A stretch of DNA of 64,000 bases, taken from positions 62,001-126,000 of the forward strand of contig NZ_VVIW01000008.1 in assembly GCF_011682045.1 (NCBI RefSeq), in the 5' to 3' direction. Below the pieces are notes generated by a model. The model was given only the letters and a program-made list of their open reading frames with translations, had not been told where the DNA came from and ran no database searches. Position 1 is the first letter of the stretch. Every line of letters begins with the position of its first letter. Below are positions 7,639-62,520 of this stretch, piece by piece. The position numbers and the translations under genes are program-made. This stretch comes from Massilia aquatica (GTDB lineage: Bacteria; Pseudomonadota; Gammaproteobacteria; Burkholderiales; Burkholderiaceae_D).

Positions 7639-7656
7639 ATTGCCGCTGCTTTTTTC

Positions 7657-11414: not shown

Positions 11415-11415
11415 G

Positions 11416-11679: not shown

Positions 11680-11701
11680 GGCGCGCCTTAAGAGTGATAG
11701 A

Positions 11702-13353: not shown

Positions 13354-13415
13354 CGATCCGGGTAGGCCGGCGGCGTCGCGATGGCGGCGCCCGCATGGCG
13401 GGGAAGGGTGGGCCG

Positions 13416-46794: not shown

Positions 46795-47783
46795 GGTGCA
46801 TGCTCCAGGTGGCTGATCTGTTTGCCGAGTGCGGCGAAATCGCGTTGGTCGTGGCCCTGGCGCAGGAACACCGGCAAGTCCGCCGCCAGTTGCGCGAAGC
46901 GCGCGTCCTTGCACAAGGGGCCGGCGCCCAGGGCGCGCGTTGCCAGCGACAATACTGCCGTGGCGGCGCTGTCCACGGCCAGGCGCACGCGCAGCGCGTC
47001 CCGCATGGCGTCGGCTTGGGGGGCGCGGTCGATCGCGTCGGCGGTGCTGCGGATCAGCGCCGCGCAAGACGCCAGGGCGACGTCGATTTCGCCCAGCTGG
47101 GCCAGGCGCAACTCGTGTTCGGGAGCGTCGGCGCATGCTGCCCACAACTGCGCCGCCAGCGTGGTCGCCGCGCCGTACCAGCAGGCGGCCACGCCAGCGC
47201 CGCCATGCCAGAAGCCGGGCCGCGCCAGGTAGGCGCCAGGCTGGCCGATGAGGCGCGCCGGCACGCGCTCGAACAGCACATCGACACTGGCGCTGTCGCG
47301 CATGCCGACCGCCGGCCAGCCGTCGCTGCTGACCGTGACGCCCGAGTGGCGCATGTCGACCGCCGCAAGGCAGGCTTCGCCGGCGGCGTTCCAGCAACTG
47401 ACCAGGGCATGCGTTACTCCGTGGGCGCCGGAGCACCAGGATTTCCTGCCATTGACATGGAAGCTTCCGTCGCCACCCTCGACCAGCGCCAGGCGCGCCT
47501 GCGGCGGTTCGGCGCACCAGACGCCCCAGATGGCGTGCGCCGGGCCGTCGCTTTGGTCCAGCTCGGCCAGGATGGCGAGGGCGTCGGTGTGGCCTTCGTA
47601 CAGCTTGGCCAGGCTGAGGTTGTGCGACCCGACCAGCGCCAGGGCTTGCCAGCGCTCCAGCGTCGCGCCTGCGCCGGGCAGGGGCAGGCGGTCCAGCCGG
47701 TCATGGACCAGCCGCTGCAATTGGTCTATGACGGCTTGGCCGCTACCTGCGTCCAGTGCTGCGGATAAGATGGTGCGCTTCAT
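46782..47783 (-). CDS. Acyl-CoA dehydrogenase-like protein
   Basis: A 333-residue flavoenzyme-like protein with the shape of the acyl-CoA dehydrogenase superfamily: an N-terminal helical part, a middle beta domain (ARLALVEGGDGSFHVNGRKSWCSGAHGVTHALV) and a C-terminal four-helix part. Residue matches to the catalytic Glu of true dehydrogenases are uncertain, and it is slightly short, so it may be a divergent member. It is the first gene of the four-gene set; AGGA precedes the chosen ATG. Confidence 0.8.
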   Translation of the reverse strand: MKRTILSAALDAGSGQAVIDQLQRLVHDRLDRLPLPGAGATLERWQALALVGSHNLSLAKLYEGHTDALAILAELDQSDGPAHAIWGVWCAEPPQARLALVEGGDGSFHVNGRKSWCSGAHGVTHALVSCWNAAGEACLAAVDMRHSGVTVSSDGWPAVGMRDSASVDVLFERVPARLIGQPGAYLARPGFWHGGAGVAACWYGAATTLAAQLWAACADAPEHELRLAQLGEIDVALASCAALIRSTADAIDRAPQADAMRDALRVRLAVDSAATAVLSLATRALGAGPLCKDARFAQLAADLPVFLRQGHDQRDFAALGKQISHLEHAPWQL

Positions 47784-47872: not shown

Positions 47873-49963
47873 TTAAAAACCAACACTTATTCCCAGTTCC
47901 AGCGAGCGGCCGTGCGCGGGCAAGGCCTGCAAGGCCCCGCGCTGCGCGATCAGGCCCGACAGATAAACGCCGCCGAGCGGATCGGCGTACTGCTTGTCGA
48001 GCAGGTTGGTCACGCCGGCCGACAGGCGCACGTTCTTGCGCAGCTGGTAGCCGGTGCGCGCGTTGAGCAGCGCGTAGCCTGCCGTGTGCGGCTCCAGCCG
48101 GCGCGCATCGGCGTGGTCCTTGCGCGCCACCAGTTTGGACTCGAACTGGCCGCTCAGGGCGCCGCTGCTGTAGTCGAGCGAGAGCAGGGCGTTGGGCGGC
48201 GCGATGTGATACAGGTCGCCGCCGTCGGCGCGCTTGCCGCGCGTGTAGGCGGCGTTGCCGGTGAATGCCAGCGCGCCTGTCAGCGGCATGCGCCATGACA
48301 AATTGGCGCCATACAGCCTGGCGTCGTGATTGGCGAAGCGCAGCAGGGCGCCGCGCGCGCTCTTGATCATGTACGGATTGAACTGGCCCAGCGTATCGGC
48401 GTCGATATAGTCGCTGACCCGGTTGTAGTAGGGGTTGAGCTTGACGAACCAGCCGTTCGCCCCGCCGCCATGCCAGTGCGCGGTAAACGCCAGCGTGGTG
48501 GCCGTTTCGGGTTTGAGGGCGATGTCGCCGACATAGCCGTTGCCATCGCCGAACCAGTTGGTCATGGTCATGGCCATCGTGCCGCGGCCCCACGAATAGC
48601 GCTCGTACAGATTTGGGGAACGCGTCTTGCGCGCCGCCGCCAGCTCGTAGGTGGTATTGGCGTCCGCTTCGAAGCGGGCCAGCGCGGTCAGGTCCAGGTT
48701 GCCGTCGCGCTGGCGCCGCGCGCGCGCGTTGAAGGCCCTGGCCGCCGCCGCGTCGGCCGCGTTCATCATGTTGCTCGAATACGGCTGGACGGCGCCGGCA
48801 TCCATCGTCACCGATTCCCAGCGCGCGCCGAACAGCGAGGTCCAGCGCGCACCGTGGCGGGTTTCGGCTTCGCCGTAGACCGCGATGCGGTCGCGCCGGC
48901 CATCGTTGATGTTTACATAGGTGTGCGGTCCCATCATCATCGAACCGGGAACGGCGGGCCAGAAGTCGTCCAGCCGGAAGGTGTGCAGTTCGTGGCCGAG
49001 GCGCACGCTGACGGCATCGCCCGCAGGGACGCTGAGCTTGAGTACATAGCCGGCATTGCGGCCGTCGGTCAGCATCGGCATGGTGCCGGGGCGCTCGGGC
49101 GTGAAGAAGCCCATGTCGTGTTTGGTGGACTGCCAGTAGGCGCTGGCGTCCAGGTCGCCCCAGCCGAAGGTCGACAGCCAGTTCAGGTTGGCGAAGGTGA
49201 CGTCGTTGCCGGTCATGTCCATGTACTGGTTGGGGAAGCCCTGGTAGGGAATGCGCTGCGTGCCGGCGCGCAGGGTCACGCGCTGGCCGTCGCCGCGCAG
49301 GGCCAGCACGGCCGACTGGTTGGTGCTGCGGTACAGGCTGCCCAGCACCCGTTGGCCGCTGCCGTCCTCGTAGCTGTGGCCGCGCGCCTGGGCGATGCTG
49401 TAGCCGACGCTCATGCGCTCGCTGGCGATGCTGGCCGACAGGCCGGCGTTGACCGCCTCGCCGTTGCTGCGCCCTCCCAGGGTGAATTTGCCGCTGGTGA
49501 CGAGGCGCTCGGCCTGGTCGGCAAAGACTGGCGCGTTTGACTTGACGGTCAGGGTGCCGCCGGTGCTGTCGCCGCCGGCGCTGACCGGCGTGACTCCGGC
49601 CAGCACCTCGATGTGGCCGATCTGGGTCGGGTCGATGTACGACAGCGGCGCGTTCATGTGGTTGGCGCAGGCGGAGGTGATTTCCATGCCGTCGATGCGG
49701 ATTTTCAGGCGGTCGTCGCCCAGGCCGTTGATGAAAGGCAGGCCGGAGACGCCGCCGCCCTGGGCCACGCTGTAGCCGGGCGTGGCGCCCAGCAGCGAGG
49801 CGGCGTCGCCGCTGCCGTTGTGCGGTGCGCGCCAGCCTTCGCCGATGGCCGAGACGATGACCCGCATGCGTGGTTCGATCGGGCCGTCGGGTGCGCCCTG
49901 GGCGCCGGCGTTGAGGGCCGCGCCGGCCAGTGCCAGCAGGGTGGGAAGGTGAAGGTGTTTCAT
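47873..49963 (-). CDS. TonB-dependent copper receptor (OprC/NosA-like)
   Basis: A 696-residue receptor with a signal peptide of about 21 residues. The plug contains ITSACANHMNAPLSYIDPTQ, where C99-x3-M103 matches the copper-binding CxxxM of OprC/NosA. Met-rich loops (MMMGPHTY, MAMTMTNW) also fit copper. The barrel ends in Phe. It overlaps the small membrane gene upstream by four bases and forms a unit with the DUF2946 gene, another copper-linked family. Confidence 0.88.
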   Translation of the reverse strand: MKHLHLPTLLALAGAALNAGAQGAPDGPIEPRMRVIVSAIGEGWRAPHNGSGDAASLLGATPGYSVAQGGGVSGLPFINGLGDDRLKIRIDGMEITSACANHMNAPLSYIDPTQIGHIEVLAGVTPVSAGGDSTGGTLTVKSNAPVFADQAERLVTSGKFTLGGRSNGEAVNAGLSASIASERMSVGYSIAQARGHSYEDGSGQRVLGSLYRSTNQSAVLALRGDGQRVTLRAGTQRIPYQGFPNQYMDMTGNDVTFANLNWLSTFGWGDLDASAYWQSTKHDMGFFTPERPGTMPMLTDGRNAGYVLKLSVPAGDAVSVRLGHELHTFRLDDFWPAVPGSMMMGPHTYVNINDGRRDRIAVYGEAETRHGARWTSLFGARWESVTMDAGAVQPYSSNMMNAADAAAARAFNARARRQRDGNLDLTALARFEADANTTYELAAARKTRSPNLYERYSWGRGTMAMTMTNWFGDGNGYVGDIALKPETATTLAFTAHWHGGGANGWFVKLNPYYNRVSDYIDADTLGQFNPYMIKSARGALLRFANHDARLYGANLSWRMPLTGALAFTGNAAYTRGKRADGGDLYHIAPPNALLSLDYSSGALSGQFESKLVARKDHADARRLEPHTAGYALLNARTGYQLRKNVRLSAGVTNLLDKQYADPLGGVYLSGLIAQRGALQALPAHGRSLELGISVGF

Positions 49964-50175
49964 GGTGCGTCCTTGCTGGCGGAAAGCGATGGCGTGGTGA
50001 AGAGGGGCGTGGCGGCGGCCGGCACGAGTTGCAGTGCGAAGAAGGGCGCCGCCGGCAGGCAGTACGACGCAAAGTAGAAGAAGGCCAGCGCGGTGAAGGC
50101 GGCGGCGTTAAAGCAGCGCAGCGTGCGCAGCGCGATGGCGAGCGTGGTCGCCGAAGCGACAGGGGTCGGTTTCAA
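49960..50175 (-). CDS. Small membrane protein in the copper cluster
   Basis: A 71-residue protein with one or two hydrophobic stretches (TLAIALRTLRCFNAAAFTAL, then FFYFASYCLPAAPFFALQLV). No family is recognised. Its stop overlaps the copper receptor start by four bases, so it is very probably translated and co-expressed. Confidence 0.6.
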   Translation of the reverse strand: MKPTPVASATTLAIALRTLRCFNAAAFTALAFFYFASYCLPAAPFFALQLVPAAATPLFTTPSLSASKDAP

Positions 50176-50263
50176 GGTAAATCCTCGTCACACAGGTTTC
50201 AGGTTGCCGCGCAAAAGGCGGCACAAGGCCCCGGCATGCCGGTGGCCAGACTGGTACGGACGG

Positions 50264-50629
50264 TCAGGCGAGGAGGGGAGGGGCGCGCGGGTTGGCCGCG
50301 GACCAGGCGTGCAGCGGTTGCGGCGCGCGGTAGAACAGCGATGGGTAGGGGCTGCGGCCGATATCGACCATCAGCATGCCGGTGGGCGGCGCCGGCGGCA
50401 GATGCGTGCCGGCGTGGGTGGTGCAGAAGGCGCAGTGCTGCATTGCGTGATGCGCCGAGCCGTCGTCGTTGGCGTCGACCTGGATCAGCCTGACGCCTTC
50501 GCTGGTACATACTTCCATCGTCGCGGAGGCCATGGCGGCGCTGCCGATGGCGGGCGCGAAGGCACTGAACAGAATGGCCAGGAAGGCGATCCAGATGTGC
50601 AGTGTTTGTCGCTTTGCCAGGGTGCTCAT
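50264..50629 (-). CDS. DUF2946 family protein, copper-associated
   Basis: A 121-residue protein with an N-terminal membrane helix or signal segment, then CTSEGVRLIQVD and HHAMQHCAFCTTHAG, whose His and Cys residues could bind copper. DUF2946 genes are regularly found beside copper receptors. ATG at 50629 begins MSTLAKRQTLHIW; the longer frame has no advantage. Confidence 0.82.
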   Translation of the reverse strand: MSTLAKRQTLHIWIAFLAILFSAFAPAIGSAAMASATMEVCTSEGVRLIQVDANDDGSAHHAMQHCAFCTTHAGTHLPPAPPTGMLMVDIGRSPYPSLFYRAPQPLHAWSAANPRAPPLLA

Positions 50630-50677
50630 GCGGGCATTATAGCTGCGCGCGTGCTGTTTGCCCACTGGCAAAAACGT

Positions 50678-52117
50678 TCAGATCGCTGCGGCGCCCTGCG
50701 CCAGCTCTTCGCCGCTGTCCACCTGCGCCAGGCCTGGCTCTTTGAACAGGATCGACAAGGCGATTTGCTTGACCTCGCGCGCGTCCACCGCGCCGCCGGC
50801 CAGCGCGCCGGGGGCGTCGGTCATGATCAGGGGGCCCATGGCCGGGTCGTCGACCGGACGTCCATGCGAGCCTTTGACGATCGACGCGTCCAGGCCGATC
50901 ACGTTCATCAAGGTGCGCAAACCGAGCTTGCGGCGCAGCAGGCGGGCCAGCACCGCCAGCCTGGGGAAGCGCAGGGCCGGATCGAAAAACAGTTCGGCCG
51001 GGTCGTAACCGGGCTTGCGGTGGATCTCCACGGTGCGCGCGAAGTCGGGCGCGCGGCGCTCGTCGAGCCAGTAGTAATAGCTGAACCAGGAACGGGCGTC
51101 GGCCATCACCACCAGTTCGCCCGAGCGCGGATGGTCCAGGCCCACGGCGGCGCGCTGCGCACCGCTCCAGACCGCCTCGACTCCGGGCACTGCGGCCAGC
51201 AGGGCGCGTACCGCCTCGACCTGGCCGGGGTCGGCCACGTAGACGTGCGCCAGCTGATGGTCGACCACCGCAAACGCGGCGCTGGCGATGGGGTCGAGCA
51301 GTTCGGCGCCGTCTTCCTCGCGCACCGCCAGCAAGCCCGCCTCGCGCAGATGCCGGTTCAGGTGCACCGGCCGGTCGACTGCCGTGATGCCGTATTCCGA
51401 CAGCACCAGCACGCGCCGTCCGGCGGCCTGGGCGTGCGCGATCAGCTCACCCGCCACCCGGTCCACGTCGGCCAGCGACTGGCGTACCGCCGCATGCTGT
51501 TCGTCCGGACCATGGCGTTGCAGGTCGTAGTCGAGATGGGGCAGGTAGACCATGGTCAGGGTGGGGTCATGCTCGTCGATCGCCATCTTCGCGGCGGCGG
51601 CGATCCAGGCGCTCGAGGCGATCGAGGTGCCCGGACCCCAGAACTGGAACAGGGGGAACTTGCCCAGCGCCGCGCCGAGCGTGTCGCGCCAGGCCGCCGG
51701 CTTGGTATAGCAATCGGGCAGCTTGCGGCCGTCGGCCTTGTAGATGGGACGCGGCGTGGCGCCGATATCATGGCTGGACGCCATGTTGAACCACCAAAAC
51801 AGGTTGGCGCAGGTGAAAGCGGGATCGCGCCGTTTTGCGCTTTCCCACAGCTTTTCGCCAGCGACCAGCTGGTTCGATTGCTTCCAGAAGCCGATCTCGG
51901 CCGTGTCGCGGAAATACCAGCCGTTGCCGACAATGCCATGCCTGGCCGGCGCCAGGCCGGTCATGAACGTCGCCTGGACCGAACAGGTGACGGCCGGCGT
52001 GACGCTGGTCAGCGGGCGCATCGTGCCGCGCGCCGCAAAGGCGGCCAGGTTGGGCGTCAAGGGTCCGAGGTGGCGCGGCGTCAGGCCGACGATGTTCAGG
52101 ATAAGCAGGGTTTGCAT
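50678..52117 (-). CDS. eboF: EboF-like alkaline phosphatase-superfamily protein
   Basis: A 479-residue enzyme of the type I phosphodiesterase/nucleotide pyrophosphatase fold. The start region LILNIVGLTPRHLGPLTPNL is followed by TPAVTCSVQATFMTGLAPARHGIVGNGW, where the nucleophile Thr/Ser and first metal ligands should lie. VYLPHLDYDLQRHGP and LSEYGITAVDRPVHLN supply further ligands. It is divergent from eboDECAB. It fits EboF, which belongs to the ebo set implicated in moving or processing small metabolites across the inner membrane. Confidence 0.8.
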   Translation of the reverse strand: MQTLLILNIVGLTPRHLGPLTPNLAAFAARGTMRPLTSVTPAVTCSVQATFMTGLAPARHGIVGNGWYFRDTAEIGFWKQSNQLVAGEKLWESAKRRDPAFTCANLFWWFNMASSHDIGATPRPIYKADGRKLPDCYTKPAAWRDTLGAALGKFPLFQFWGPGTSIASSAWIAAAAKMAIDEHDPTLTMVYLPHLDYDLQRHGPDEQHAAVRQSLADVDRVAGELIAHAQAAGRRVLVLSEYGITAVDRPVHLNRHLREAGLLAVREEDGAELLDPIASAAFAVVDHQLAHVYVADPGQVEAVRALLAAVPGVEAVWSGAQRAAVGLDHPRSGELVVMADARSWFSYYYWLDERRAPDFARTVEIHRKPGYDPAELFFDPALRFPRLAVLARLLRRKLGLRTLMNVIGLDASIVKGSHGRPVDDPAMGPLIMTDAPGALAGGAVDAREVKQIALSILFKEPGLAQVDSGEELAQGAAAI

Positions 52118-52363
52118 CGGCGTACCTCGCATTCGGTGACGGATCGGGACAACGCTGGCAGGACATCGCGGCACCCGAGCTTACTCCACTTTCTTGCGGA
52201 AAGTCTAACAATATCGCTACGCTCATCTATTTATTTAAATTGCGACATTCGCTGGTTTTTTCACAATAAAATCTGTGTATATTCATGTCTATCAAGAATG
52301 TTATGGCGTGCATGCCTTGGGTTTCCGCAGTGATCGACGATGTCTATCCGGGAGAGAAAGCAC
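52118..52363. promoter_or_regulatory. Divergent promoter region between eboF and eboD
   Basis: A 246-base AT-rich gap, strongly different from the GC-rich flanks. The centre (52200-52290) contains several TA-rich hexamers but no pair of boxes with correct spacing could be fixed. Both arms of the ebo cluster should start here. Confidence 0.5.
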
Positions 52364-53569
52364 ATGATGGAACGGGCCGACAGCAGTTTGTCCGACGCCT
52401 TGCGCACGGTGGCGTTCAGCGTCGAGTACCGCATCCCGGTGGTGTTTACGCGCAGCGCCTTCGATCCCGCCAATCCGCATCTGTGCACGCTGCTCACCTT
52501 GCGCGAGCCGCACCGGCGCCACCGCATGATCGTCTTTGCCGACGCCGGCGTGGTGGCCGCGATGCCGCACCTGGCCGACCAGGTGGCCGCTTACGCCGGC
52601 GCGCATGCGGCCCATATCGAGCTGGCCGCCGCGCTGGTGGTGCTGCCCGGCGGCGAGGCGTGCAAGAACGATGCGGAGCTGGTGCCGCAGTTGCTGGCAT
52701 GCCTGGCCAGGCATGCCATCGACCGCCATTCCTACGTGCTGGCCATCGGCGGCGGCGCGCTGCTCGACGCCGTCGGCTACGCGGCCGCGATCTTTCATCG
52801 GGGCGTGCGGCATATCCGCTTTCCGAGCACGGTGCTGGCGCAGGCCGACAGCGGGGTGGGCGTCAAGAATGCGGTCAACTGGCATGGCCAGAAAAACCTG
52901 CTCGGCACCTTCAGCCCGGCCTGGGGCATCGTCAACGACGGCGATTTCATCGACCTGCTGCCGGCGCGCGAAAAGCGGGCCGGCATGGCCGAAGCGGTCA
53001 AGGTCGCGCTGATCCGCGACCGCGCGTTCTTCCTCCAGATCGAACGGCAGATGCAGGCCCTGGCGCGCTTCGAGCCGGCCGCGCTGGCGGCGCTGATCGC
53101 GCGCTCGGCCGCGCTGCATCTGCACCAGATCGCCAGCGGGGGCGACCCGTTCGAACGCGGCTCGGCGCGCCCGCTCGACTACGGCCACTGGGCCGCGCAC
53201 AAGCTCGAACAACTGAGCGGGCATGCGCTTTCGCACGGCGAAGCGGTGGCCATCGGGATCGCCCTCGACGCCCGCTATTCGGTGCTGGCGGGCTTGCTGC
53301 CCGCCGGCGACGACGCCCGCATCCACCGTCTGCTGGCCGGCCTCGGGTTTCGCCTGTGGCACGAGCAGCTCCTGAGCCGGGGCGACGATGGCGGCCTGGC
53401 CGTGCTGCGGGGACTGGCCGAGTTTCGCCAGCACCTGGGCGGCGATCTGACCATCACCCTGCTGGCGGGGCTAGGCAGCGGAGTCGAAGTGCACTGGATG
53501 GACAGCGGCCTGGTGGCCGACGCCATCGGCTGGCTGCGGCAACTGGACCGGGAGGCGCCATGCGCCTGA
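52364..53569 (+). CDS. eboD: EboD, dehydroquinate synthase-like sugar-phosphate cyclase
   Basis: A 401-residue protein of the dehydroquinate synthase superfamily. The NAD loop is AIGGGALLDAVGY. Zinc ligands are suggested by GMAEAVKVALIRD (Glu), ALSHGEAVAIG (His) and the DYGHWAAHKLEQL stretch (His). The ebo clusters encode this as EboD, which may use a sedoheptulose-type sugar phosphate rather than the shikimate substrate. The start is 52364 or 52367 behind GGGAG. It overlaps eboE by ten bases. Confidence 0.87.
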   Translation: MMERADSSLSDALRTVAFSVEYRIPVVFTRSAFDPANPHLCTLLTLREPHRRHRMIVFADAGVVAAMPHLADQVAAYAGAHAAHIELAAALVVLPGGEACKNDAELVPQLLACLARHAIDRHSYVLAIGGGALLDAVGYAAAIFHRGVRHIRFPSTVLAQADSGVGVKNAVNWHGQKNLLGTFSPAWGIVNDGDFIDLLPAREKRAGMAEAVKVALIRDRAFFLQIERQMQALARFEPAALAALIARSAALHLHQIASGGDPFERGSARPLDYGHWAAHKLEQLSGHALSHGEAVAIGIALDARYSVLAGLLPAGDDARIHRLLAGLGFRLWHEQLLSRGDDGGLAVLRGLAEFRQHLGGDLTITLLAGLGSGVEVHWMDSGLVADAIGWLRQLDREAPCA

Positions 53570-54768
53570 TCCACGCGGGACGGCTGGCGCACCTGAGCTA
53601 CTGCACCAATATCCATCCGGGCGAGAGCTGGGACGAGATCGGCGCCGCGCTCGACCGGTACATTCCGCAGGTGCGCGCACGCCTGGCGCAGTCGGGGCAT
53701 GCGCCGCCGGGGCCGTTCGGCATCGGCCTGCGCCTGTCCGCGGCGGCGGCGGCGTCCCTGAGCGAGGCGCCGGCGCTGCGCGCCTTCCAGCAGCAGCTGG
53801 CGCGCCTGGACGCCTATGTGTTCACCATTAACGCCTTTCCGTTCGGCGCCTTTCACGGCGGACGCGTCAAGGAACAGGTGTACCAGCCGGACTGGCGCCA
53901 TGCGCAGCGGCTCGACTTTACGCTGCACGCCGCGCATATCCTGGCGCAGCTGTTGCCCGTTGGGGTCGAGGGCAGCATCTCGACCGTGCCGGGCGCCTTC
54001 GGGGACGCCGGCGAGCAGGCCGGCGCGCCGATTGCCGCCAACCTGATCGGCGCGGTCGCGCAGCTGGCCGCGCTCGAACGCGCTAGCGGCAAGCGCATCG
54101 TGCTGGCGCTGGAACCGGAGCCGGCCTGCCTGCTCGAGAGCGTGGACGACGTGCTGGCCTTCTTTGCGGCGCACCTGTCCGGGCCCGCCGCGAACGCCCG
54201 CCTGGCCGCACTGGCCGGCTGCGACGAGGCCGCGGCGCAGGTGCTGCTGCGGCGCCACCTGGGCGTGTGCTTCGACGTCTGTCACGCCGCGGTCGGCTTC
54301 GAAGACCCGCTGGCGGCGCTGGCGCGGCTGCACCAGGCCGGCATCGCGGTGCCCAAGATCCAGCTCTCGTGCGCGGTGCGCATCGCGCGCATGCACGCCG
54401 GCCTGGCCGAGGCGGTGGCGCGCCTTGACGACGGCGTCTACCTGCACCAGGTGTCGGTGCGCGGCGCGCAGCTGCGCCGCTACACCGACCTGCCGCAGGC
54501 CCTGCAAGCGTTCCGGCGCGGCGAGGCCGAGGGCGAATGGCGTATCCATTGCCATGTGCCGGTGCTGGCCGGCGCGGACGGCGAGCTGGCTTCGACCGAC
54601 GAGCAGTTGCGCGCGGTGCTCGGCGCGCTGGGCGGCATGGCGCGCCTGCCGCACCTCGAAGTGGAAACCTACACCTGGGATGTGCTGCCCGCCGCCTATC
54701 GCGGCGGCCCGAAAGCGCATGCCATCGCGCGCGAACTGGCGGCCGTCATCGACGCGCTGGCGGCATGA
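53560..54768 (+). CDS. eboE: EboE, TIM-barrel metabolite traffic protein
   Basis: A 402-residue protein of the xylose isomerase-like TIM-barrel type. It starts LAHLSYCTNIHPGESWDEIG, with FTINAFPFGAFHGGRVKEQV, IVLALEPEPACLLESVDDVL and VCFDVCHAAVGFEDP as barrel segments bearing Glu, His and Asp metal ligands. It is the family named EboE. It overlaps eboD by 10 bases and eboC by four. Confidence 0.88.
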   Translation: MRLIHAGRLAHLSYCTNIHPGESWDEIGAALDRYIPQVRARLAQSGHAPPGPFGIGLRLSAAAAASLSEAPALRAFQQQLARLDAYVFTINAFPFGAFHGGRVKEQVYQPDWRHAQRLDFTLHAAHILAQLLPVGVEGSISTVPGAFGDAGEQAGAPIAANLIGAVAQLAALERASGKRIVLALEPEPACLLESVDDVLAFFAAHLSGPAANARLAALAGCDEAAAQVLLRRHLGVCFDVCHAAVGFEDPLAALARLHQAGIAVPKIQLSCAVRIARMHAGLAEAVARLDDGVYLHQVSVRGAQLRRYTDLPQALQAFRRGEAEGEWRIHCHVPVLAGADGELASTDEQLRAVLGALGGMARLPHLEVETYTWDVLPAAYRGGPKAHAIARELAAVIDALAA

Positions 54769-55658
54769 GCAGCGCGGCGCGCAAGCTGCCCGCGGCCGGC
54801 GTGTATCTGCGCCTGGGGCGGGTGTCGAACCTGCCCACCGTGTGGACCAATGTGCTGGCCGGCGTCTACCTCGGCGGCGGCAGCGCGGCGGCGGCCTCGG
54901 CCACCCTGCCGATCGTGATGGCGGCGGTGTCGGCCTGCTATGTGGCCGGCATGTACCTCAACGATGCCTTCGACCGCGCGGTCGATGCGCGCGAACGGCC
55001 CGAGCGCCCGATCCCGGCCGGCGAAATCAGCGCCGCCTCGGTGTTTTCGATCGGCTTCGCGCTGCTGGCGCTGGGGCTGTTCGGGCTGGCGCTGTGCGGC
55101 CAGCGCGCCGGACTGGCCGGCGCGGGACTGGTCGCCACCATCCTGGTGTATGACATCTGGCACAAGGGCAATCCGGCCAGCCCGCTGGTGATGGGGGCCT
55201 GCCGCGCGCTGGTGTATGTGGCCGCCGCGGCGGCGGCCGGCATGGCGGCGGGCGGCGCGGGCGCGCTGGCGCTGGCGGCGCTGGCCATGCTGGCCCATGT
55301 GGCGGGCCTGACCTACGCGGCCAAGCAGGAAAGCCTGGACCGGATCGGGCGGCTGTGGCCACTGGCCTTGCTGGCCTTGCCGCTGGCGCTGTATGGCTGG
55401 AGGGCGGGGGCCGGCGGCGCCGCCGGGCTGGCGATCTGGGCGGCGCTGGCGCTGGCCAATGCGGCCGCCGTGCGGCGCCTGGCGCGCCGCAGCGCGCGCG
55501 GCGCTGTGCCCGGCGCGGTGGCGCAGCTGATCGCCGCCACCGCGCTGCTGGACGGGGTGGTGATGGCGGCGGCGGGCGCTTCGCCGGCGCTGGTATGCGC
55601 CTGCGCCGGCGCCTATCTGTGCACGCGCCTTCTGCAACGCCTGGTGGCCGGCACATGA
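54765..55658 (+). CDS. eboC: EboC, UbiA-family prenyltransferase
   Basis: A 297-residue membrane protein with about eight helices. The first Asp motif is NDAFDRAVDARERPERPIP, as in UbiA enzymes. The second motif is weak (VYDIWHKGNP). It should attach a prenyl chain to a small molecule, as proposed for the ebo pathway. It overlaps eboE and eboA by four bases each. Confidence 0.9.
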   Translation: MSSAARKLPAAGVYLRLGRVSNLPTVWTNVLAGVYLGGGSAAAASATLPIVMAAVSACYVAGMYLNDAFDRAVDARERPERPIPAGEISAASVFSIGFALLALGLFGLALCGQRAGLAGAGLVATILVYDIWHKGNPASPLVMGACRALVYVAAAAAAGMAAGGAGALALAALAMLAHVAGLTYAAKQESLDRIGRLWPLALLALPLALYGWRAGAGGAAGLAIWAALALANAAAVRRLARRSARGAVPGAVAQLIAATALLDGVVMAAAGASPALVCACAGAYLCTRLLQRLVAGT

Positions 55659-56524
55659 AGGCGCGCATTGCCATGCTGGGGAACTGGGTGCGGCGCCGCG
55701 TCACGCCCGCTTGCGCCCAGTGGTTCGACGGCGCGCTACGGGAGGTCGCACACGAGGGCGGCGAGCCGGCCCTGGCGCGCGCGCTCGGCTGGGCGCCGCG
55801 CAAGCTGGGCAAGGCCGACCTGGGATTGTCGGACAGCGAGGCGGAGCAGGCGGCGGCGCTGCGCCCGGGGCTCGATGCGGCGCTCTGGAGCGTCGACCAG
55901 GCGGCCCGCATCGCCTTCATTCTGGCCGGCTTGGGGGGCGAGCCGGAAGCGTTCGCGGGCCGCCTCGACAGCCTGGCCGATACGGCCGAACTGAACGAAG
56001 CGATCGCCCTGTACCGCGGTTTTCCGCTGTACCCGGCGGCGGCGGCGATCGAAGCGCGTGCGCGCGCCGCGGTGCGCTCGGCGATGCGCCCGCTGTTCGA
56101 GGCCATCGCCCACCGCAATCCGTATCCGGCCGAGCAGTTCGACGAGGCGGCCTGGAACCAGATGGTGGTCAAGACGTTTTTCCTGGACAGTCCCTTGTGG
56201 CCGGTGCAGGGCATCGAGCGGCGCGCCAATCCGGCCCTGGCCGCGATCCTGCTGGATCTGGCCCATGAGCGCTGGGCCGCCGGGCGCGCGGTCAGCGCCG
56301 AGTTGTGGCGTTGCGTCGCCCCGTATCCGGGGCCGGCCGCCTGTGCCGCGATGGAACGGGTGCTGGCCGGTGGGTCCGAGCCCGAGCGCCTCGGCGTGGC
56401 GCTGGCCCTGGCGCGCGCCGAGGGCAGCGATGCCGCGCTGCTGCGCGCCGCCTGCGCGCGCCAAGGCCTGGACCAGCGCGCCGCGCGCGCCGGCTGGGCT
56501 GCGCTGGCCGCCGCCAGCGGCTAG
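55655..56524 (+). CDS. eboA: EboA domain protein
   Basis: A 289-residue soluble helical protein. The segment ARALGWAPRKLGKADLGL, the PAEQFDEAAWNQMVVKTFF block and the LWPVQGIERRANPALAAIL motif are typical of the EboA family, whose biochemical role is unknown. It is coupled to eboC by ATGA and lies 53 bases before eboB. Confidence 0.87.
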   Translation: MKARIAMLGNWVRRRVTPACAQWFDGALREVAHEGGEPALARALGWAPRKLGKADLGLSDSEAEQAAALRPGLDAALWSVDQAARIAFILAGLGGEPEAFAGRLDSLADTAELNEAIALYRGFPLYPAAAAIEARARAAVRSAMRPLFEAIAHRNPYPAEQFDEAAWNQMVVKTFFLDSPLWPVQGIERRANPALAAILLDLAHERWAAGRAVSAELWRCVAPYPGPAACAAMERVLAGGSEPERLGVALALARAEGSDAALLRAACARQGLDQRAARAGWAALAAASG

Positions 56525-56577
56525 CGCCCCGGGCGCGGCGGTGCCGGTCATTCATTTCAATCAGAGGGGAGCAGACG

Positions 56578-57681
56578 ATGACACACAGTGCGGACGACCA
56601 TCAGTTCGGCGCCGACGAAGCCTTGATCGATGAAATGTTCGGCGGGCGCTCGGCCGCCTGCCCCTGCTGCGGCGGCACGCTCAGTCCGGCGATGATCGAG
56701 CGCATCGTGGCCGAGGCGGGGCAGATGAACAGCGCGCGCCAGGCCGCGCGGCGCCTGCCGCCCGGCGCCAGCGGCATGCTGATCGACCCGCACGCGCACA
56801 TGATCGCCCGCACCACCGACGATTACGAGGCCATGGCGCGGGCCGGCATCGTGGCGGTGATCGAGCCGGCTTTCTGGCTGGGCCAGCTGCGCACCAATGT
56901 GGGCAGCTTCATCGACTACTTTTCCACCATCAGCGGCTTCGAGCGCTTTCGCGCCGGCCAGTTCGGGATCCGCCACTACTGCACCATCGGCCTCAATCCG
57001 AAGGAGGCCAACAACGAGGCGCTGGCCGAGGCCGTGCTCGACGTGCTGCCGCGCTACCTGGCCAAGGAGGGCGTGGTGGCGCTGGGCGAGATCGGCTACG
57101 ACGAGCAGACGGCGCTGGAAGACAAGGCCCTGCGCGCCCAGATCGCGCTGGCCAGGCAGTTCGAGCTGCCGATCATGATCCATACGCCGCACCGCGACAA
57201 GAAGCGCGGCACCACGCGCACCATGGACGTGCTGGAGGAGTGCGGGGCCGACCCGGCGCGCTGCGTGATCGACCATAACAACGAAGAGACGGTGGCCGAG
57301 GTGCTCGACCGGGGCTACTGGTGCGCCTTCACGATTTATCCATCGACCAAGATGGGCAACGAACGCCTGGCCGCCATCGTGGCGCAGTATGGCGCGGAGC
57401 GCCTGATCGTCGATTCGGCCTGCGACTGGGGCGTGTCCGATCCGCTGGCGGTGCCCAAATCGGCGCGCCTGATGGCCAGCCGGGGCATCCCGGCCGAGGT
57501 GATTCACCAGGTGTGCTACGCCAATGCGCTGGCCGTCTACGGGCTCAATGGCGAAATGCGCGAACAGGACTGGCTGGCGCCGCCCCCGATCGACCAGCGC
57601 AACCTCTACAGCGGCAACTCGGTATTGCGCGGACAAGCGCCGCGCATCGACGCGGCGGCCGGTAGCGATGTGATCAGTTAG
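56578..57681 (+). CDS. eboB: EboB, TatD-family metal hydrolase with N-terminal Cys extension
   Basis: A 367-residue protein. The TatD-like barrel begins at about residue 67 with MLIDPHAHMIART (HxH motif), has VALGEIGYDEQTALEDKALR and MIHTPHRDK, and ends with IVDSACDWGVSDPLAVP. EboB proteins are usually about 285 residues. Here some 65 residues precede the barrel, with ACPCCGGTLSPAMIERI forming a CPCC zinc- or redox-like motif. Ribosome site GGGGAG precedes the ATG. It closes the ebo operon. Confidence 0.88.
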   Translation: MTHSADDHQFGADEALIDEMFGGRSAACPCCGGTLSPAMIERIVAEAGQMNSARQAARRLPPGASGMLIDPHAHMIARTTDDYEAMARAGIVAVIEPAFWLGQLRTNVGSFIDYFSTISGFERFRAGQFGIRHYCTIGLNPKEANNEALAEAVLDVLPRYLAKEGVVALGEIGYDEQTALEDKALRAQIALARQFELPIMIHTPHRDKKRGTTRTMDVLEECGADPARCVIDHNNEETVAEVLDRGYWCAFTIYPSTKMGNERLAAIVAQYGAERLIVDSACDWGVSDPLAVPKSARLMASRGIPAEVIHQVCYANALAVYGLNGEMREQDWLAPPPIDQRNLYSGNSVLRGQAPRIDAAAGSDVIS

Positions 57682-57729
57682 TTTCCCGAGCCTGGAGCAC
57701 GCTCATCCCCACCCACCAAAGGAGCGGCA

Positions 57730-58500
57730 ATGCAGCAAGCAAACTCAACGACGGTCAGCCTGACCTCGACCTGGTTCATCCGGCCCGGTTGCGAAAGCGA
57801 GGCGCTGGCCGGCCTGCGCAAGCTGGCCGAGGAGGTGCAGGCGCAGGAGCCGGGCACCCTGATCTACCGCGTGCACACCCCGTTCACGGCCGACGCACGT
57901 TTGCAGGCGCTGCCGCCGGCCGCTGCGCACAGCGTGGTGTTCTTCGAAGAGTACCGCGACGCCGACGCCTTCCTGGCGCACCTGAACGGGCCGGCCTTCA
58001 CCGGCTTCACGCAAACGTACGGGGCGCTGTTCGTCTCGTCCCACGGCAAGCCATATACGACGGTCGATTTCCTGTCGCAGCAGGCCGGTTTCGTGCGCCC
58101 CGGCCGCACGGCGGCGCCGCCAGCGCCAGGCAATGGCCACCCGTCGCGTATGTTCGAGATCATCGCCAGGGACCAGGAGCGGGCGCTGACCTTTTACGGC
58201 ACGGTGTTCGGCTGGACCTTCGTGCGCGGCAGCCATGACTTTGCCTACGTTCATTTCGGCAGCGGCAGCGCGGCCAGCATGGGCGGCATCGGACAGATGG
58301 ACCCGGCCGTTCCGGGCGAAGCGCCCGGCTGCCGCTTCTATCTCACGGTCGAGCACCTCGAGACGGCCATCGCGCGCGCGCTCGCGGCAGGCGGGTGGCG
58401 CCTGATGGACCCTACCCAGGCCGATGGCTACCGCTTCGCCATGATCACCGATCCCGAAGGCAATGAGATCGGGCTGCTGGAGCCGTTCAGCGCCGCGTAG
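57730..58500 (+). CDS. Fusion of an antibiotic-monooxygenase-type and a glyoxalase/VOC domain
   Basis: A 256-residue protein. Residues about 10-110 form an ABM-like dimeric alpha/beta domain (FIRPGCESEALAGLRKLAEEVQAQE). Residues about 139-254 form a glyoxalase/VOC domain (SRMFEIIARDQERALTFYGTVFGWTF, ending MITDPEGNEIGLLEP). Such folds work on small aromatic or quinone substrates. It follows eboB after 48 bases and precedes the VioB-like pair, suggesting a role in one pathway. Confidence 0.85.
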   Translation: MQQANSTTVSLTSTWFIRPGCESEALAGLRKLAEEVQAQEPGTLIYRVHTPFTADARLQALPPAAAHSVVFFEEYRDADAFLAHLNGPAFTGFTQTYGALFVSSHGKPYTTVDFLSQQAGFVRPGRTAAPPAPGNGHPSRMFEIIARDQERALTFYGTVFGWTFVRGSHDFAYVHFGSGSAASMGGIGQMDPAVPGEAPGCRFYLTVEHLETAIARALAAGGWRLMDPTQADGYRFAMITDPEGNEIGLLEPFSAA

Positions 58501-58528
58501 ACCGCATTTTGGACCAACCAGGGAGTAC

Positions 58529-60391
58529 ATGATGAGCTACTTGAACCCGCTGCGCCTGCATTTTTCCGGCCGCTTCCAGGCCAATGTCTCGACCGTCAAC
58601 AACGATCCCGGCCATTTCGACAATGCCACCTTCGATCCCAGTTACCAGCAGATGCAGACTGCCGCCGCGGCCAACGGCTGGTTCAATCCGGAGGGCGACG
58701 CTTCGTGGCGCCTGCTCGGCTGCGCGATCACGGCGGCCTGGACCCCGGACGGCGCGGTCGCGGCGTCCGACCCGGTACTGGCTTGCCAGGTGGCCGACGC
58801 CAACAGCCGCGTCAGCGCCAAGCTGGCCGATCTCGACAGCGAGCAGCAAATGGTGTCGGAGATCTGGGGCCTGCAGGTGCGCATCGCCGATGCGGCCGGC
58901 AACACCTTGCTGCTCGGCGACTACACGCCGGCCGCCTTCATGGATATCTGGAACCGTGCCACCGGCGGCAATTCCGGTGGCGACAACGCCGCCGGCGCCA
59001 TGTACCAGTCGGTGCTGACCAATCTGCAATGGGGCGACATCGCGGGCTCGCCGTTCCTGCTGGCGCTGCGCGGCGCCGCCGGCTCGGGCAAACTGTCGAT
59101 CAAGTTCAACGTCGACGGCATCAACCTCAACTTCGGCGACCCCGAATTCATGTGCGGGCGCCTGGTCGGCACGATCGGTCCGGCCGCTGCCGGCGAGCCG
59201 GATCATTTGTTGCTGGGGCGCCAGTTCATGGCTGTCAGCACCCAGCCGCCTTCCGGATTTTTCGCGCCGCAAGGGGGGATCAATTTTTTCGCCGCCCAGG
59301 TCGATACCTCCGCCGGCTGTATCTTTCTCGACCTGGGCAATGCGCTCAGCACACCCACGCCGGGAGGCCCAATGAGCGACCTCGGGCGGTTGACGCTGGG
59401 CGTGGCCACGGCGGACGGGAAGACCCCGGGCCTGGGGTCGATCGAGCCGCACGGTCCCGCTGGGTATACCGATCCCGCGTGGTATGGCCGGACGGCGGGC
59501 GTGGTCGTCATCAACTTGACTGCGGAGCAATTGAAGGCGGTCGAGGAGCAGGCGCTGGTGCTCAGCGGCGACCTGGCGCCGGCCGATGCCTTCATCATGG
59601 AGTCGCCTTTGGGCGCGTTCGTGCGTGCCGACCGGTATGTGTACCGCCTCAGTCCGGGCGATACGGTGCGGGTGCCGGTGTACGCGACCCGCTGGGGCCG
59701 CCCCTTTGCCGGCGCCGACCTGACCTTTGTCGCCGATGCCGGCGGGCTGCAGCCGAGTAACAGTATCAATGCGCAGGATGTACCGAATGTCGCCGTGCCG
59801 CTCTCGGCCATGCCGTTCGAGCGCAGCGCATGCACCGACAGGAACGGCGTGGCGTGGCTGGCGCTGGCGCCGACCGACCCGGGCACGCCGCGCTACTTCA
59901 ATGGCGGCCAGGATTACGGTATCGACGGGCAGGTGTACGGGATCCGCGTGCGCTTCACCGACCAGCGCTTCGCGTACAACGAGAACCAGTGGAATTTCAT
60001 CAGCATCTTGCTGTGGAGCGATTTCGCCCCGCCAGCCCCGGTCACCTGGGACGCGCTGCAGCCGATCTTCCAGCAGTATGCCAATCTGTATCCGGTCATG
60101 AAGCGCTTTCTCGACCTGGGCAATTTCCAGGACGTGGTGGCCAATGCGGCCCTGCTCAAGCTGGCGTTCGGACTCGATCCGTCCAATCCGAACGCCATGC
60201 CGGTCACGCGCGACCTGTCGCCGGCCAAGCGCAACGCGATTCTCTCCTGGCTCGACAACCCGCTGTCGGGCAACGGCGCGGCGCCGGCGCGGCGGCTGCG
60301 CGCGAACACCGCGCCCAGCCCCGAAGCGGACGCCATGAAAGCCAGGGGCGGCAAGGCCTACGCCGCCTCGCGCCGCCTGTGCCTGCGCTAA
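58529..60391 (+). CDS. VioB N-terminal-domain-like protein
   Basis: A 620-residue soluble protein. Its start (YLNPLRLHFSGRFQANVSTV then NNDPGHFD) follows the same pattern as the VioB start (ILDFPRIHFRGWARVNAPTA then NRD). Its C-terminal end (NLYPVMKRF, MPVTRDLSPAKRNAIL) parallels VioB's VYPFMSD and MPSTRELSAPKARLFL, in the segment just before VioB's ferritin-like domain. VioB couples two imines of indole-3-pyruvate in violacein synthesis. Here the N-terminal region is a protein of its own. The comparison is from memory of VioB and not an alignment. The start is 58529 or 58532 behind GGGAG. Confidence 0.7.
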   Translation: MMSYLNPLRLHFSGRFQANVSTVNNDPGHFDNATFDPSYQQMQTAAAANGWFNPEGDASWRLLGCAITAAWTPDGAVAASDPVLACQVADANSRVSAKLADLDSEQQMVSEIWGLQVRIADAAGNTLLLGDYTPAAFMDIWNRATGGNSGGDNAAGAMYQSVLTNLQWGDIAGSPFLLALRGAAGSGKLSIKFNVDGINLNFGDPEFMCGRLVGTIGPAAAGEPDHLLLGRQFMAVSTQPPSGFFAPQGGINFFAAQVDTSAGCIFLDLGNALSTPTPGGPMSDLGRLTLGVATADGKTPGLGSIEPHGPAGYTDPAWYGRTAGVVVINLTAEQLKAVEEQALVLSGDLAPADAFIMESPLGAFVRADRYVYRLSPGDTVRVPVYATRWGRPFAGADLTFVADAGGLQPSNSINAQDVPNVAVPLSAMPFERSACTDRNGVAWLALAPTDPGTPRYFNGGQDYGIDGQVYGIRVRFTDQRFAYNENQWNFISILLWSDFAPPAPVTWDALQPIFQQYANLYPVMKRFLDLGNFQDVVANAALLKLAFGLDPSNPNAMPVTRDLSPAKRNAILSWLDNPLSGNGAAPARRLRANTAPSPEADAMKARGGKAYAASRRLCLR

Positions 60392-60421
60392 CGCCCATCG
60401 CCCATCGACCAGGAGAACAGC

Positions 60422-61483
60422 ATGATCCTCATTCAAAACAGCTTGCTCGCGGGCCTCGATGGCCCGGCCCCCGCGCTCGCCGACGTCCACACCGCCCTGC
60501 AGAACGCGCTCGAACTTGAGCACGCCACCATTCCACCCTATTTGTACGCGCTGTATTCGCTTGACGCCTCCCGCAATACGCAGATCGCGGCCATTCTCAA
60601 GTCGGTCGTCACCGAAGAGATGCTGCACATGACCCTGGTGGCGAATGTGCTCAATGCGCTGGGCGGCACCCCACGGGTCGACCGTCCCGACTTCGTGCCG
60701 CATTATCCGGGGCCCTTGCCGGGCGGCGTCGACAGCCAGTTGACGGTCAACCTGGCGCCGTTTTCGATGACCCAGCTCGATGCCTTCCTGTCGATCGAGG
60801 AACCGGAGCACCCGCTGCATTTCAGGCGCGGGCCCAGCGATGCGCTGGAAGAGCAGGTCACCATCGGCCAGTTCTACCGCAAGATCAGGGAAGCGCTGGC
60901 GCTGCTGCCGCCCGGGTCCTTCGTCCAGCCCGCGCGCAACCAGGTCGGACCGGGCCTGATGCGCGAGGTGGTCGTGGTCGACGACCTGGCGAGCGCGCAG
61001 CGGGCGCTCGACACCATCATCGAGCAGGGCGAGGGCAGCCTGCTTTCGCCCGACGAAGGCGCGGGCGACGGCTACGCCCACTACTACCGCTTCATGCAGA
61101 TCAAGAAGGGCAGGATGCTGGTGCGCTCGGGCACCACCTATGCCTACGCCGGCGCGGCCATCTCGTTCGACGAGGGCGGAGTGTACCGGCTGCCGGTCAA
61201 TCCCACCGCCGCCTTGTACCAGAAGACGGCGAACGGGAACCAGCTGTTCGCCTTCGATAACTTCAACTACACCTACACCAGTCTGCTCAATGCGCTGCAA
61301 GCGGTGTTTAACGGACGGGACAACAGCGACGAATTCAACGTCGCCATCGGCCTGATGATGTCGCTCAAGCTGCAAGCCCAGGTCATGGCCGCAGGCGTTG
61401 CCTACGGCAACATCCCGACCGGGCCAAGTTTTCAATACCAGCCAAGCAATCCAGCGCTGGACCAATCCCACCGTTCGAGATGA
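60422..61483 (+). CDS. Ferritin-like VioB C-terminal-domain-like protein
   Basis: A 353-residue protein with an iron-binding ferritin-like bundle of the iminophenyl-pyruvate dimer synthase type. LQNALELEHATIPPYLYALY and VTEEMLHMTLVANVLNALGG hold the Glu and His ligands (E-x2-H and EExxH). They parallel VioB's LELSVMLQYLYAAYS and HEEMIHYLVVNNLLMALG. It follows the VioB N-like gene by 30 bases. Together the two could form the dimer synthase as two chains. VioA- or RebO-type amino-acid oxidase genes are not in the window. Confidence 0.75.
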   Translation: MILIQNSLLAGLDGPAPALADVHTALQNALELEHATIPPYLYALYSLDASRNTQIAAILKSVVTEEMLHMTLVANVLNALGGTPRVDRPDFVPHYPGPLPGGVDSQLTVNLAPFSMTQLDAFLSIEEPEHPLHFRRGPSDALEEQVTIGQFYRKIREALALLPPGSFVQPARNQVGPGLMREVVVVDDLASAQRALDTIIEQGEGSLLSPDEGAGDGYAHYYRFMQIKKGRMLVRSGTTYAYAGAAISFDEGGVYRLPVNPTAALYQKTANGNQLFAFDNFNYTYTSLLNALQAVFNGRDNSDEFNVAIGLMMSLKLQAQVMAAGVAYGNIPTGPSFQYQPSNPALDQSHRSR

Positions 61484-61548: not shown

Positions 61549-62520
61549 ATGACGATCCGGATTTCCCTGTACCTGCCGCTGACCGCGGCATGGTTTGCCT
61601 GGAGCATGGCGGCCACCGTGCCGGCGGCGGCGCAAAGTCCCGCCGAACGCCATGTGTACCCCACCGGCGGCGTGCACAATACCAAAGGTTGCACGCCGCC
61701 GTCGAACTGCATTGCGCCGCGCAAGCCGGGCGAGCCTACCGATCCGCTGTATCCGGCTACCTGGTCGAGCGAATGGATCATGTACCGGGTGTTCAGGAAT
61801 GCCGACAGATTCCCGCCGCCGTACGCCTCCCCGCCGGACGGCCTGACGCCGTCCGACTACGAGATTTCGCACGGCGCCACGTATTACGACGCCAACTACC
61901 GCCCGCGCGATGGCGACGGCAGCGGGGCGATGATGGAATACTATCGCAAGCGCTGCCTGCCGATCTTCCCGATGAAAAACGACTTCAGTTGCGCGTTCAT
62001 TTCGCTCGGCAACAAGGCATATTTCCTGCGCTATGCGGACCGGCCCGCCGGCACGCCCGCGTGCTGCCAGTTCTCGCTGGAGAATCACCCACCCCGGCGC
62101 GATTTCATCAAGCACTTGCCGTACGATGCGGCGCGCAGCGCGCATCTGGGCGGCAGCCTGCAAGCTTACGCCACGGGCGGGGCCGGACCGCTGTTCGGCT
62201 ATGCCTTCGAAAAACGGGCGCGGCGCGACAGTTATAACAAGGCGGCGCCGGCCTACCGCCATCCGCAATCGTTCTACTTTTCCGGCTTTCCGGGCGACCC
62301 GCCGAACGCGCCCATCGTCAGCCAGAACTACCGCAACTTCCGCATGCAGCCGCCCGATCCGCGCACGACCTGGGATCAAGTGGCCAGGACATGCCGGCCG
62401 CAGCCGCAATGGTGCTGCCTGTTCGACGGCGATTGCGAGGGCGGCGAGAGCAAGGCCGCGACCAGCCACCAGCAATGGAACGGGGTGCCGTCCGGCGCCG
62501 GGGACAAGGTGCCGCACTGA
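61549..62520 (+). CDS. Secreted Cys-containing protein of unknown function
   Basis: A 323-residue exported protein. A signal peptide ends at AAAQ around residue 29. The mature part has about nine cysteines, including CCQFS near the middle and CCLFDGDCEGGE near the end, and is rich in Pro, Tyr and Arg. AAGGA precedes the ATG. No family is recognised. It follows the ferritin-like gene by 65 bases on the same strand and may belong to the same unit. Confidence 0.65.
   Translation: MTIRISLYLPLTAAWFAWSMAATVPAAAQSPAERHVYPTGGVHNTKGCTPPSNCIAPRKPGEPTDPLYPATWSSEWIMYRVFRNADRFPPPYASPPDGLTPSDYEISHGATYYDANYRPRDGDGSGAMMEYYRKRCLPIFPMKNDFSCAFISLGNKAYFLRYADRPAGTPACCQFSLENHPPRRDFIKHLPYDAARSAHLGGSLQAYATGGAGPLFGYAFEKRARRDSYNKAAPAYRHPQSFYFSGFPGDPPNAPIVSQNYRNFRMQPPDPRTTWDQVARTCRPQPQWCCLFDGDCEGGESKAATSHQQWNGVPSGAGDKVPH

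What the first reader, a model, noticed from the sequence alone, without database searches (positions are those of the whole stretch)
50678..61483. Complete ebo cluster followed by a split VioB-like dimer synthase
The ebo genes (eboF divergent from eboDECAB) are known for moving small-molecule precursors across the inner membrane in cyanobacteria and for an unknown product elsewhere. Here they are followed on the same strand by an ABM/VOC fusion and by two proteins that match the N- and C-terminal halves of VioB. This gives a possible pathway for an aromatic dimer (bis-indole- or bis-phenyl-like) that is prenylated or exported through the ebo system, a combination I do not know as described.
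Basis: partly seen in the sequence, partly recalled or inferred. Interest (0 to 1): 0.8.

Follow-up and report, generated by a model that had tools for sequence, protein, structure and literature searches.

The report
Export cluster with VioB-like enzyme pair
A six-gene cluster (ebo) thought to carry small molecules out of the cell sits in one gene row with a two-part relative of the violacein enzyme VioB and a conserved, probably secreted protein, and the same partnership recurs in other bacteria, which gives a way to find out what both systems make.

Summary
eboF is divergent to eboDECAB, an ABM/VOC fusion and two proteins that match VioB residues 1-581 and 597-933 by profile-profile comparison (E about 1e-17 each; reversed and shuffled controls 0.3 or worse). 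The ferritin-like half keeps E33, E66, H69, E126, E204 and H220 in 66 of 66 unfused family members and 5 of 5 true VioBs. A ninth plus-strand gene, 61549-62520, also belongs. Linkage depends on lineage: from the ebo side, 31 of 31 clusters in one Pseudomonas-like genus have a VioB-N relative close to eboF, but only 1 of 19 other Burkholderiales and 1 of 16 Bacteroidota. Against a bis-indole: no VioA in this genome, scores far below the VioB cut-off, and EDB-type clusters lack the ferritin half. I read it as an oxidising or coupling enzyme pair that feeds the ebo export module, akin to the EDB nematode-repellent cluster. The chemistry is inferred. New variant of a known kind.

The parts
50678..52117 (-). 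eboF, type I phosphodiesterase/nucleotide pyrophosphatase family, divergent from the rest
   Evidence: PF01663 E 5e-63; homologue in 31 of 31 Pseudomonas-like ebo clusters and in the 28 loci that carry ebo
52364..53569 (+). eboD, 3-dehydroquinate-synthase-like sugar phosphate cyclase
   Evidence: NF004852 552 bits, over cut-off 333; start chosen by my own gene caller, earlier in-frame starts exist
53560..54768 (+). eboE, TIM-barrel metabolite traffic protein
   Evidence: NF035939 412.6 bits, over cut-off 250
54765..55658 (+). eboC, UbiA-type prenyltransferase
   Evidence: PF01040 E 2e-14; best NCBIfam NF035940 (EboC) but under its cut-off
55655..56524 (+). eboA
   Evidence: NF035938 EboA domain 145 bits, over cut-off 50; NF035937 200.7 bits, under its cut-off 320
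56578..57681 (+). eboB, TatD-family metal hydrolase
   Evidence: PF01026 E 1e-18; homologues in 27 of 83 loci, in the ebo rows
57730..58500 (+). ABM/VOC fusion (antibiotic biosynthesis monooxygenase domain + glyoxalase-like domain)
   Evidence: PF03992 E 1e-10, PF18029 E 5e-9; homologue in 22 of 80 loci fetched through the pair, 11 of them with ebo; in Flavobacterium L061 a lone VOC gene lies between the ferritin-like gene and eboA, its cluster recurring in 11 loci
58532..60391 (+). VioB N-terminal-half homologue, 619 aa (start 58529 also possible)
   Evidence: hhalign to VioB 1-581, E 1.4e-17 with controls; alignment of 34; model pLDDT 84.5, pTM 0.88
60422..61483 (+). ferritin-like PF12902 protein, VioB C-terminal-half homologue, 353 aa
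   Evidence: PF12902 E 1.6e-61; hhalign to VioB 597-933, E 9.9e-18; E33, E66, H69, E126, E204, H220 the same in 66 of 66 unfused family members (this one counted) and 5 of 5 VioBs
   Evidence: homologues in 9 of 80 loci fetched through the pair, in 22 of 31 Pseudomonas-like ebo clusters, and on plasmids of Mycetohabitans (between eboD and eboE), Gloeothece and Azospirillum; alignments; no Pfam or NCBIfam match

Best explanation
The row eboDECAB - ABM/VOC - VioB-N - ferritin-like - orf10 (with divergent eboF) is one pathway for a small, probably aromatic, cell-associated or exported metabolite. SHOWN here: the two proteins are homologues of the two halves of VioB as separate genes; the ferritin-like half keeps four Glu and two His residues, shared with true VioB, that look like a two-metal site; the set ebo + pair recurs in four phyla in different gene orders. 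INFERRED: the two proteins form one complex that uses the di-metal site and O2 to oxidise or couple an aromatic amino-acid-derived imine or keto acid, as VioB does in violacein; the imine comes from an unlinked oxidase or transaminase; the ABM/VOC protein tailors the product; the Ebo proteins (cyclitol made by EboD, prenyl transfer by EboC) move it over the inner membrane, as deduced from mutants for the scytonemin monomer in Nostoc (PMC6282210); orf10 acts on it or holds it outside the inner membrane. By analogy with the EDB cluster of P. fluorescens NZI7 (which contains ebo and makes the bacterium repellent to C. elegans) a role against grazers is the likeliest use.
For: Homology with controls. 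Metal-ligand pattern. Linkage: 26 of 80 fetched loci have three or more ebo genes near the pair, 22 have all six; 27 of the 48 searched genomes without local ebo have EboE elsewhere, against 3 of 398 Pseudomonadota, 20 of 399 Burkholderiales, 31 of 249 in one Pseudomonas-like genus and 16 of 198 in the phylum of G542 (the first two counts include this genome, the last two their centre genomes, which were known to have EboE). The ebo label needs at least 13 changes on the VioB-N tree, 9 forced by well supported branches. The window is a mosaic: its VioB-N groups with its own second copy and Pseudoduganella flava (96*), while its EboE groups with Massilia BJB1822, P. violacea, G017, Chromobacterium and Jeongeupia (96*), away from P. 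flava. In the Pseudomonas-like genus 31 of 31 ebo clusters carry a VioB-N relative close to eboF, 22 of 31 an orf10. Two of three Mycetohabitans plasmid loci have an amino-acid-oxidase-type gene (LodA/GoxA) upstream of pair + ebo.
Against: No VioA or other dedicated amino-acid oxidase lies in the row; the genome's nearest VioA match is 21.4 bits and its nearest LodA match is distant and unlinked (32% identity, contig 12). The EDB-type clusters have VioB-N relatives without a ferritin half, so the N-half seems able to act without it. Many pairs stand without ebo: 54 of 80 loci locally, and 21 of 48 searched genomes of that set have no EboE (many are MAGs by title). Most ebo clusters sampled outside that genus show no pair in the stretch read: 18 of 19 Burkholderiales, 15 of 16 Bacteroidota, some cut by contig ends. 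In the even Pseudomonadota sample, leaving out this genome, EboE (2 of 397) and the VioB-N model (1 of 397) overlap in no genome, though that model missed the EDB-type relative that G257 has. The di-metal site is read from conservation, not from a structure.
Confidence: 0.45

Rival explanations
1. The pair is part of the ebo chemistry itself rather than a separate product pathway: a metal-dependent oxidase or a stabilising protein that works on the cyclitol-isoprenoid (carrier) that ebo is thought to make, with no aromatic coupling involved.
For: orf10 sits inside the ebo row in Mycetohabitans; the pair sits between eboF and eboD in G017 and in Massilia; no oxidase partner in the window row and no VioA in the genome.
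Against: Most ebo clusters sampled outside the Pseudomonas-like genus show no pair, so ebo does not need it; pairs occur in genomes without EboE (21 of 48); VioB, the named relative, works in aromatic coupling (family name, role recalled).
Confidence: 0.27
2. One reading: the pair makes a true bis-indole or bis-phenyl imine dimer as VioB does, which ebo prenylates or exports.
For: Homology over both halves of VioB with the metal-ligand pattern kept; the EDB cluster was reported to turn tryptophan into indole products in E. coli (review PMC9655573, passages read; primary paper not held).
Against: No VioA in cluster or genome (RebO not tested); far under the VioB equivalog cut-off; [quoted passage not shown]
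Confidence: 0.13
3. The pair is a stand-alone stress or iron-handling protein that happens to lie beside ebo by repeated local rearrangement.
For: Pairs without local ebo are common (54 of 80 loci), and this genome has a second pair on contig 24 with no ebo gene found by phmmer or HMM in the 56 kb of that 76-kb contig that were read.
Against: At least 13 changes of the label on the tree, linkage in four phyla, and EboE elsewhere in 27 of 48 genomes speak against chance; the window pairs two modules of different kin anew.
Confidence: 0.05

Closest known systems
EDB ('edible') cluster of Pseudomonas fluorescens NZI7 (Burlinson 2013; Zhou, Vergis and Mahmud 2022; neither held, seen only through passages or sections of PMC6282210, PMC9655573, PMC4406715, PMC5736907)
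   Same: Contains a full ebo cluster (PMC6282210). The ebo clusters of the Pseudomonas-like genus that fit this description carry VioB-N relatives (31 of 31) and orf10 (22 of 31) like the window.
   Different: No ferritin-like or ABM/VOC match in those 31 stretches; instead secreted proteins, with CxxCH motifs in the one cluster inspected for it (L109).
VioB, iminophenyl-pyruvate dimer synthase of violacein biosynthesis (TIGR04492)
   Same: Both halves homologous and in the same order; N-terminal sequence motif and the Glu/His set of the ferritin-like half kept.
   Different: Two genes, not one of about 1000 aa; ferritin-like half 21-24 bits against a cut-off of 1250; no VioA in the genome.
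ebo cluster of cyanobacteria and eustigmatophytes (scytonemin precursor traffic; PMC5133447 passages, PMC6282210 Introduction and Discussion)
   Same: All six genes eboA-F.
   Different: Partner genes differ: the terms ferritin, VioB and violacein do not occur in either main text.
LodA/GoxA-type CTQ oxidase loci with a VioB-like pair (Mycetohabitans, Hymenobacter, Spirosoma, Verrucomicrobiaceae, Streptomyces)
   Same: VioB-N and ferritin-like genes; in two Mycetohabitans plasmids and one Streptomyces also ebo.
   Different: An amino-acid-oxidase-type gene is linked there, not in the window.

Membership tests
ebo cluster (eboA-F) | all six genes present and clustered | tested here: met
ebo cluster (eboA-F) | EboE over its curated cut-off | tested here: met
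   412.6 against 250 bits
ebo cluster (eboA-F) | EboC over its curated cut-off | tested here: not met
   107 against 250 bits, though it is the best-scoring NCBIfam family; placed by neighbours and homologues
ebo cluster (eboA-F) | moves a metabolite over the inner membrane | not testable with these tools
   deduced from mutants in Nostoc (PMC6282210)
VioB equivalog (TIGR04492) | score over 1250 bits in one protein of about 1000 aa | tested here: not met
   best match in the genome 23.7 bits, the contig-24 ferritin-like copy; window ferritin-like protein 21.5 bits
VioB superfamily (homology of both halves) | N-half and ferritin-like half both align with VioB in register | tested here: met
   VioB 1-581 and 597-933, E about 1e-17; controls 0.15-0.86
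VioB superfamily (homology of both halves) | ferritin-like Glu/His ligand set kept | tested here: met
   E33, E66, H69, E126, E204, H220 in 66 of 66 unfused members and 5 of 5 VioB; metal binding itself not tested
violacein / bis-indole pathway | VioA-type amino-acid oxidase in the genome | tested here: not met
   VioA query: 21.4 bits over residues 6-75 only; RebO was not used as a query
EDB-type cluster (as seen in the Pseudomonas-like genus) | ebo + VioB-N relative + orf10 | tested here: met
   (orf10 in 22 of the 31 themselves)
EDB-type cluster (as seen in the Pseudomonas-like genus) | VioB-N without ferritin half, with secreted CxxCH-type proteins | tested here: not met
   window has one VioB-N with a ferritin partner; the search with the two secreted proteins of L109 covered the window's 20-kb copy L010 without a hit
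scytonemin cluster | scyABC core genes | not tested
   no ScyA-C query was run

The most novel reading that the evidence does not exclude
The ebo export module has been joined many times, in at least four phyla, to VioB-family di-metal coupling enzymes (split or fused), so that 'ebo + VioB-like + orf10' defines a large, uncharacterised class of metabolites finished in the periplasm or at the cell surface, of which the EDB nematode repellent is the only member with a known phenotype.
Probability: 0.4. Interest if true: 0.8.

Novelty: new variant of a known kind. Interest (0 to 1): 0.62.

Why it matters
What ebo makes or carries outside scytonemin producers has been open since the cluster was named in 2016 (PMC5133447). 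A recurrent partner with a definable chemistry (a VioB-family pair with a di-metal signature) and a conserved, probably secreted protein turn that into a directly testable pathway, tie it to the EDB cluster with its repellence phenotype, and give search handles (VioB-N motif, orf10) for ebo-dependent metabolites in many genomes. It also suggests that VioB is a fusion within an older family of two-gene enzymes; that order of events was not tested.
Full report
What is there. The window lies in a 7.47-Mb genome in 99 contigs. eboF reads on the minus strand (50678-52117); divergent from it run eboD, eboE, eboC, eboA, eboB, an ABM/VOC fusion, a 619-aa protein, a 353-aa PF12902 ferritin-like protein and a 323-aa protein with a leader that by eye looks like a signal peptide. 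Three neighbours overlap and the other gaps are 30-65 bases.

Relation to VioB. Alone, the 619-aa protein matches nothing in Pfam, NCBIfam or the PDB sequences. True VioBs came from genomes reached through the loci (5 of 12 genomes over the cut-off). A profile of 69 N-half proteins aligns with VioB 1-581 and one of 66 ferritin-like proteins with VioB 597-933, both at probability 98.9 and E about 1e-17; reversed and column-shuffled VioB gave E 0.32-0.68 and four other cluster families 0.15-0.86. The VioB model itself touches both halves weakly in several genomes (N-half at VioB 515-591, ferritin-like half within 659-889). The consensus start of 34 aligned N-halves is MSYLxxPRLxFSGxFQADVSTVNNDP, with M1, Y3, L4, R8, F11, G13, F15, Q16, T21, N23 and N24 invariant. 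In the ferritin-like half E33, E66, H69, E126, E204 and H220 are the same in 66 of 66 unfused members and 5 of 5 VioBs; I read this as a two-metal site, which is inference.

Linkage. A scan of the collection of 84,980 species genomes with the N-half gave 80 loci (cap; 81 confirmed). All 80 carry a ferritin-like gene, 17 of them as one fused frame; 26 of 80 carry three or more ebo genes in the fetched flanks of up to 10 kb, 22 all six, in Betaproteobacteria, Alphaproteobacteria, Bacteroidota, Streptomyces and a cyanobacterium. Orders differ: pair between eboF and eboD in G017, behind eboC and ABM/VOC in Cupriavidus and Paraburkholderia, in front of eboA in Flavobacterium. Of the 54 loci without local ebo I sent 50; 48 genomes were searched and 27 have EboE elsewhere. 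In the stretches around those EboE genes (29 stretches, L140-L168), 8 carry a further VioB-N and 5 of these also the ferritin-like gene. Eight plasmid records hold the N-half; ebo genes adjoin in 5 of 8 (three Mycetohabitans, Aureibacter, and in Gloeothece only TatD and DHQ-synthase genes in PLSDB's incomplete table), none in three Azospirillum.

Sampling from the ebo side. EboE is found in 3 of 398 Pseudomonadota and 20 of 399 Burkholderiales (this genome counted in both), 31 of 249 genomes of the genus of G257 and 16 of 198 of the phylum of G542 (the two centre genomes, known beforehand to have EboE, are counted). G542 is the genome of an Algoriphagus record, hence Bacteroidota. Neighbourhoods: a VioB-N relative in 1 of 19 (other Burkholderiales), 31 of 31 and 1 of 16; some stretches are cut by contig ends. 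In the Pseudomonas-like clusters one gene for a secreted protein lies between eboF and the VioB-N gene (seen in L109). In the even Pseudomonadota sample the VioB-N model is found in 2 of 398 genomes, this one and one without EboE; it missed the more distant EDB-type relative in G257, so it undercounts.

Evolution. On a tree of 103 VioB-N rows the ebo label needs 13 changes, 9 of them forced by well supported branches. On a tree of 100 EboE rows the VioB label needs 10, 8 forced. The window's VioB-N groups with its own second copy (contig 24) and Pseudoduganella flava, while its EboE groups with Massilia BJB1822, P. violacea, Chromobacterium, Jeongeupia and G017, away from P. flava. So the window joins two modules of different kin. 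These are quick trees with long-branch warnings.

The ninth gene. orf10 has no known family but a highly conserved core. It is found in 9 of 80 loci gathered through the pair, in 22 of 31 Pseudomonas-like ebo clusters, between eboD and eboE in two Mycetohabitans plasmids, and behind the ferritin-like gene in Gloeothece and one Azospirillum plasmid.

EDB. Klicki et al. (PMC6282210; [quoted passage not shown] A review (PMC9655573; passages) reports that EDB expressed in E. coli turns tryptophan into indoles, two of which repelled C. elegans moderately. The Pseudomonas-like clusters seen here fit this: ebo, VioB-N relatives, mostly orf10, and secreted proteins with CxxCH in the one inspected (L109). 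The primary papers are not held, so the identity is inferred.

Mechanism. Step 1, an aromatic imine or keto acid from an unlinked enzyme (inferred; no VioA; a distant LodA-like gene on contig 12). Step 2, O2-dependent oxidation or coupling by the VioB-like pair (inferred from homology and ligand pattern). Step 3, tailoring by ABM/VOC (inferred from domains). Step 4, ebo-dependent passage over the inner membrane (deduced from mutants elsewhere for scytonemin, inferred here). Step 5, a role of orf10 outside the inner membrane (inferred from its leader). A dimer is possible but not favoured.

Novelty. Of ten searches of the held open-access library (listings, some of them capped), ask the question directly: no held paper has an ebo term together with 'ferritin-like' or with 'VioB'. 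Subscription papers are mostly not held. The parts are known kinds; the recurrent combination and the orf10 link appear new on that evidence.

Noticed in passing
L007:10107-12999 (own genome, contig 24): A second VioB-N (59-60% identical to the window's) and ferritin-like pair, with no ebo gene or ABM/VOC hit in the 20 kb around it.
   Followed up: partly
window 47873-50665 (minus strand): TonB-dependent receptor and a DUF2946 protein directly beside eboF; in some Lysobacterales and Ramlibacter loci another TonB receptor (not clustered with this one) and a VTT-domain membrane protein adjoin orf10 or ABM/VOC and the pair.
   Followed up: partly
L305:5498-8559, L309:5498-8559: Two Mycetohabitans endofungorum megaplasmids: LodA/GoxA-type CTQ oxidase and an FAD protein annotated as tryptophan 7-halogenase upstream of VioB-N, ferritin-like gene and ebo; LodA relatives also within a few kb of VioB-N in L031, L033, L034 and L060.
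   Followed up: partly
L109:2454-3746 and 7141-8280 (minus strand): Secreted proteins of this EDB-type cluster carry CxxCH motifs, so periplasmic c-type haem proteins may act on the exported compound.
   Followed up: partly
L058 (Nitrospirillum amazonense): One locus holds ebo, a VioB-N/ferritin-like pair and an EDB-type VioB-N with a relative of the secreted EDB proteins: a bridge between the two cluster types.
   Followed up: no
window 9526-16834 (minus strand) and 661-4569 (plus): By the look of their first residues, genes of a type III secretion/flagellar-type export apparatus and of a type IV pilus; judged by eye only.
   Followed up: no
window 44736-47783 (minus strand): A tight row that by eye reads as glycosyltransferase, methyltransferase and PIG-L-type deacetylase, then a gene with an acyl-CoA dehydrogenase middle domain (PF02770).
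   Followed up: no
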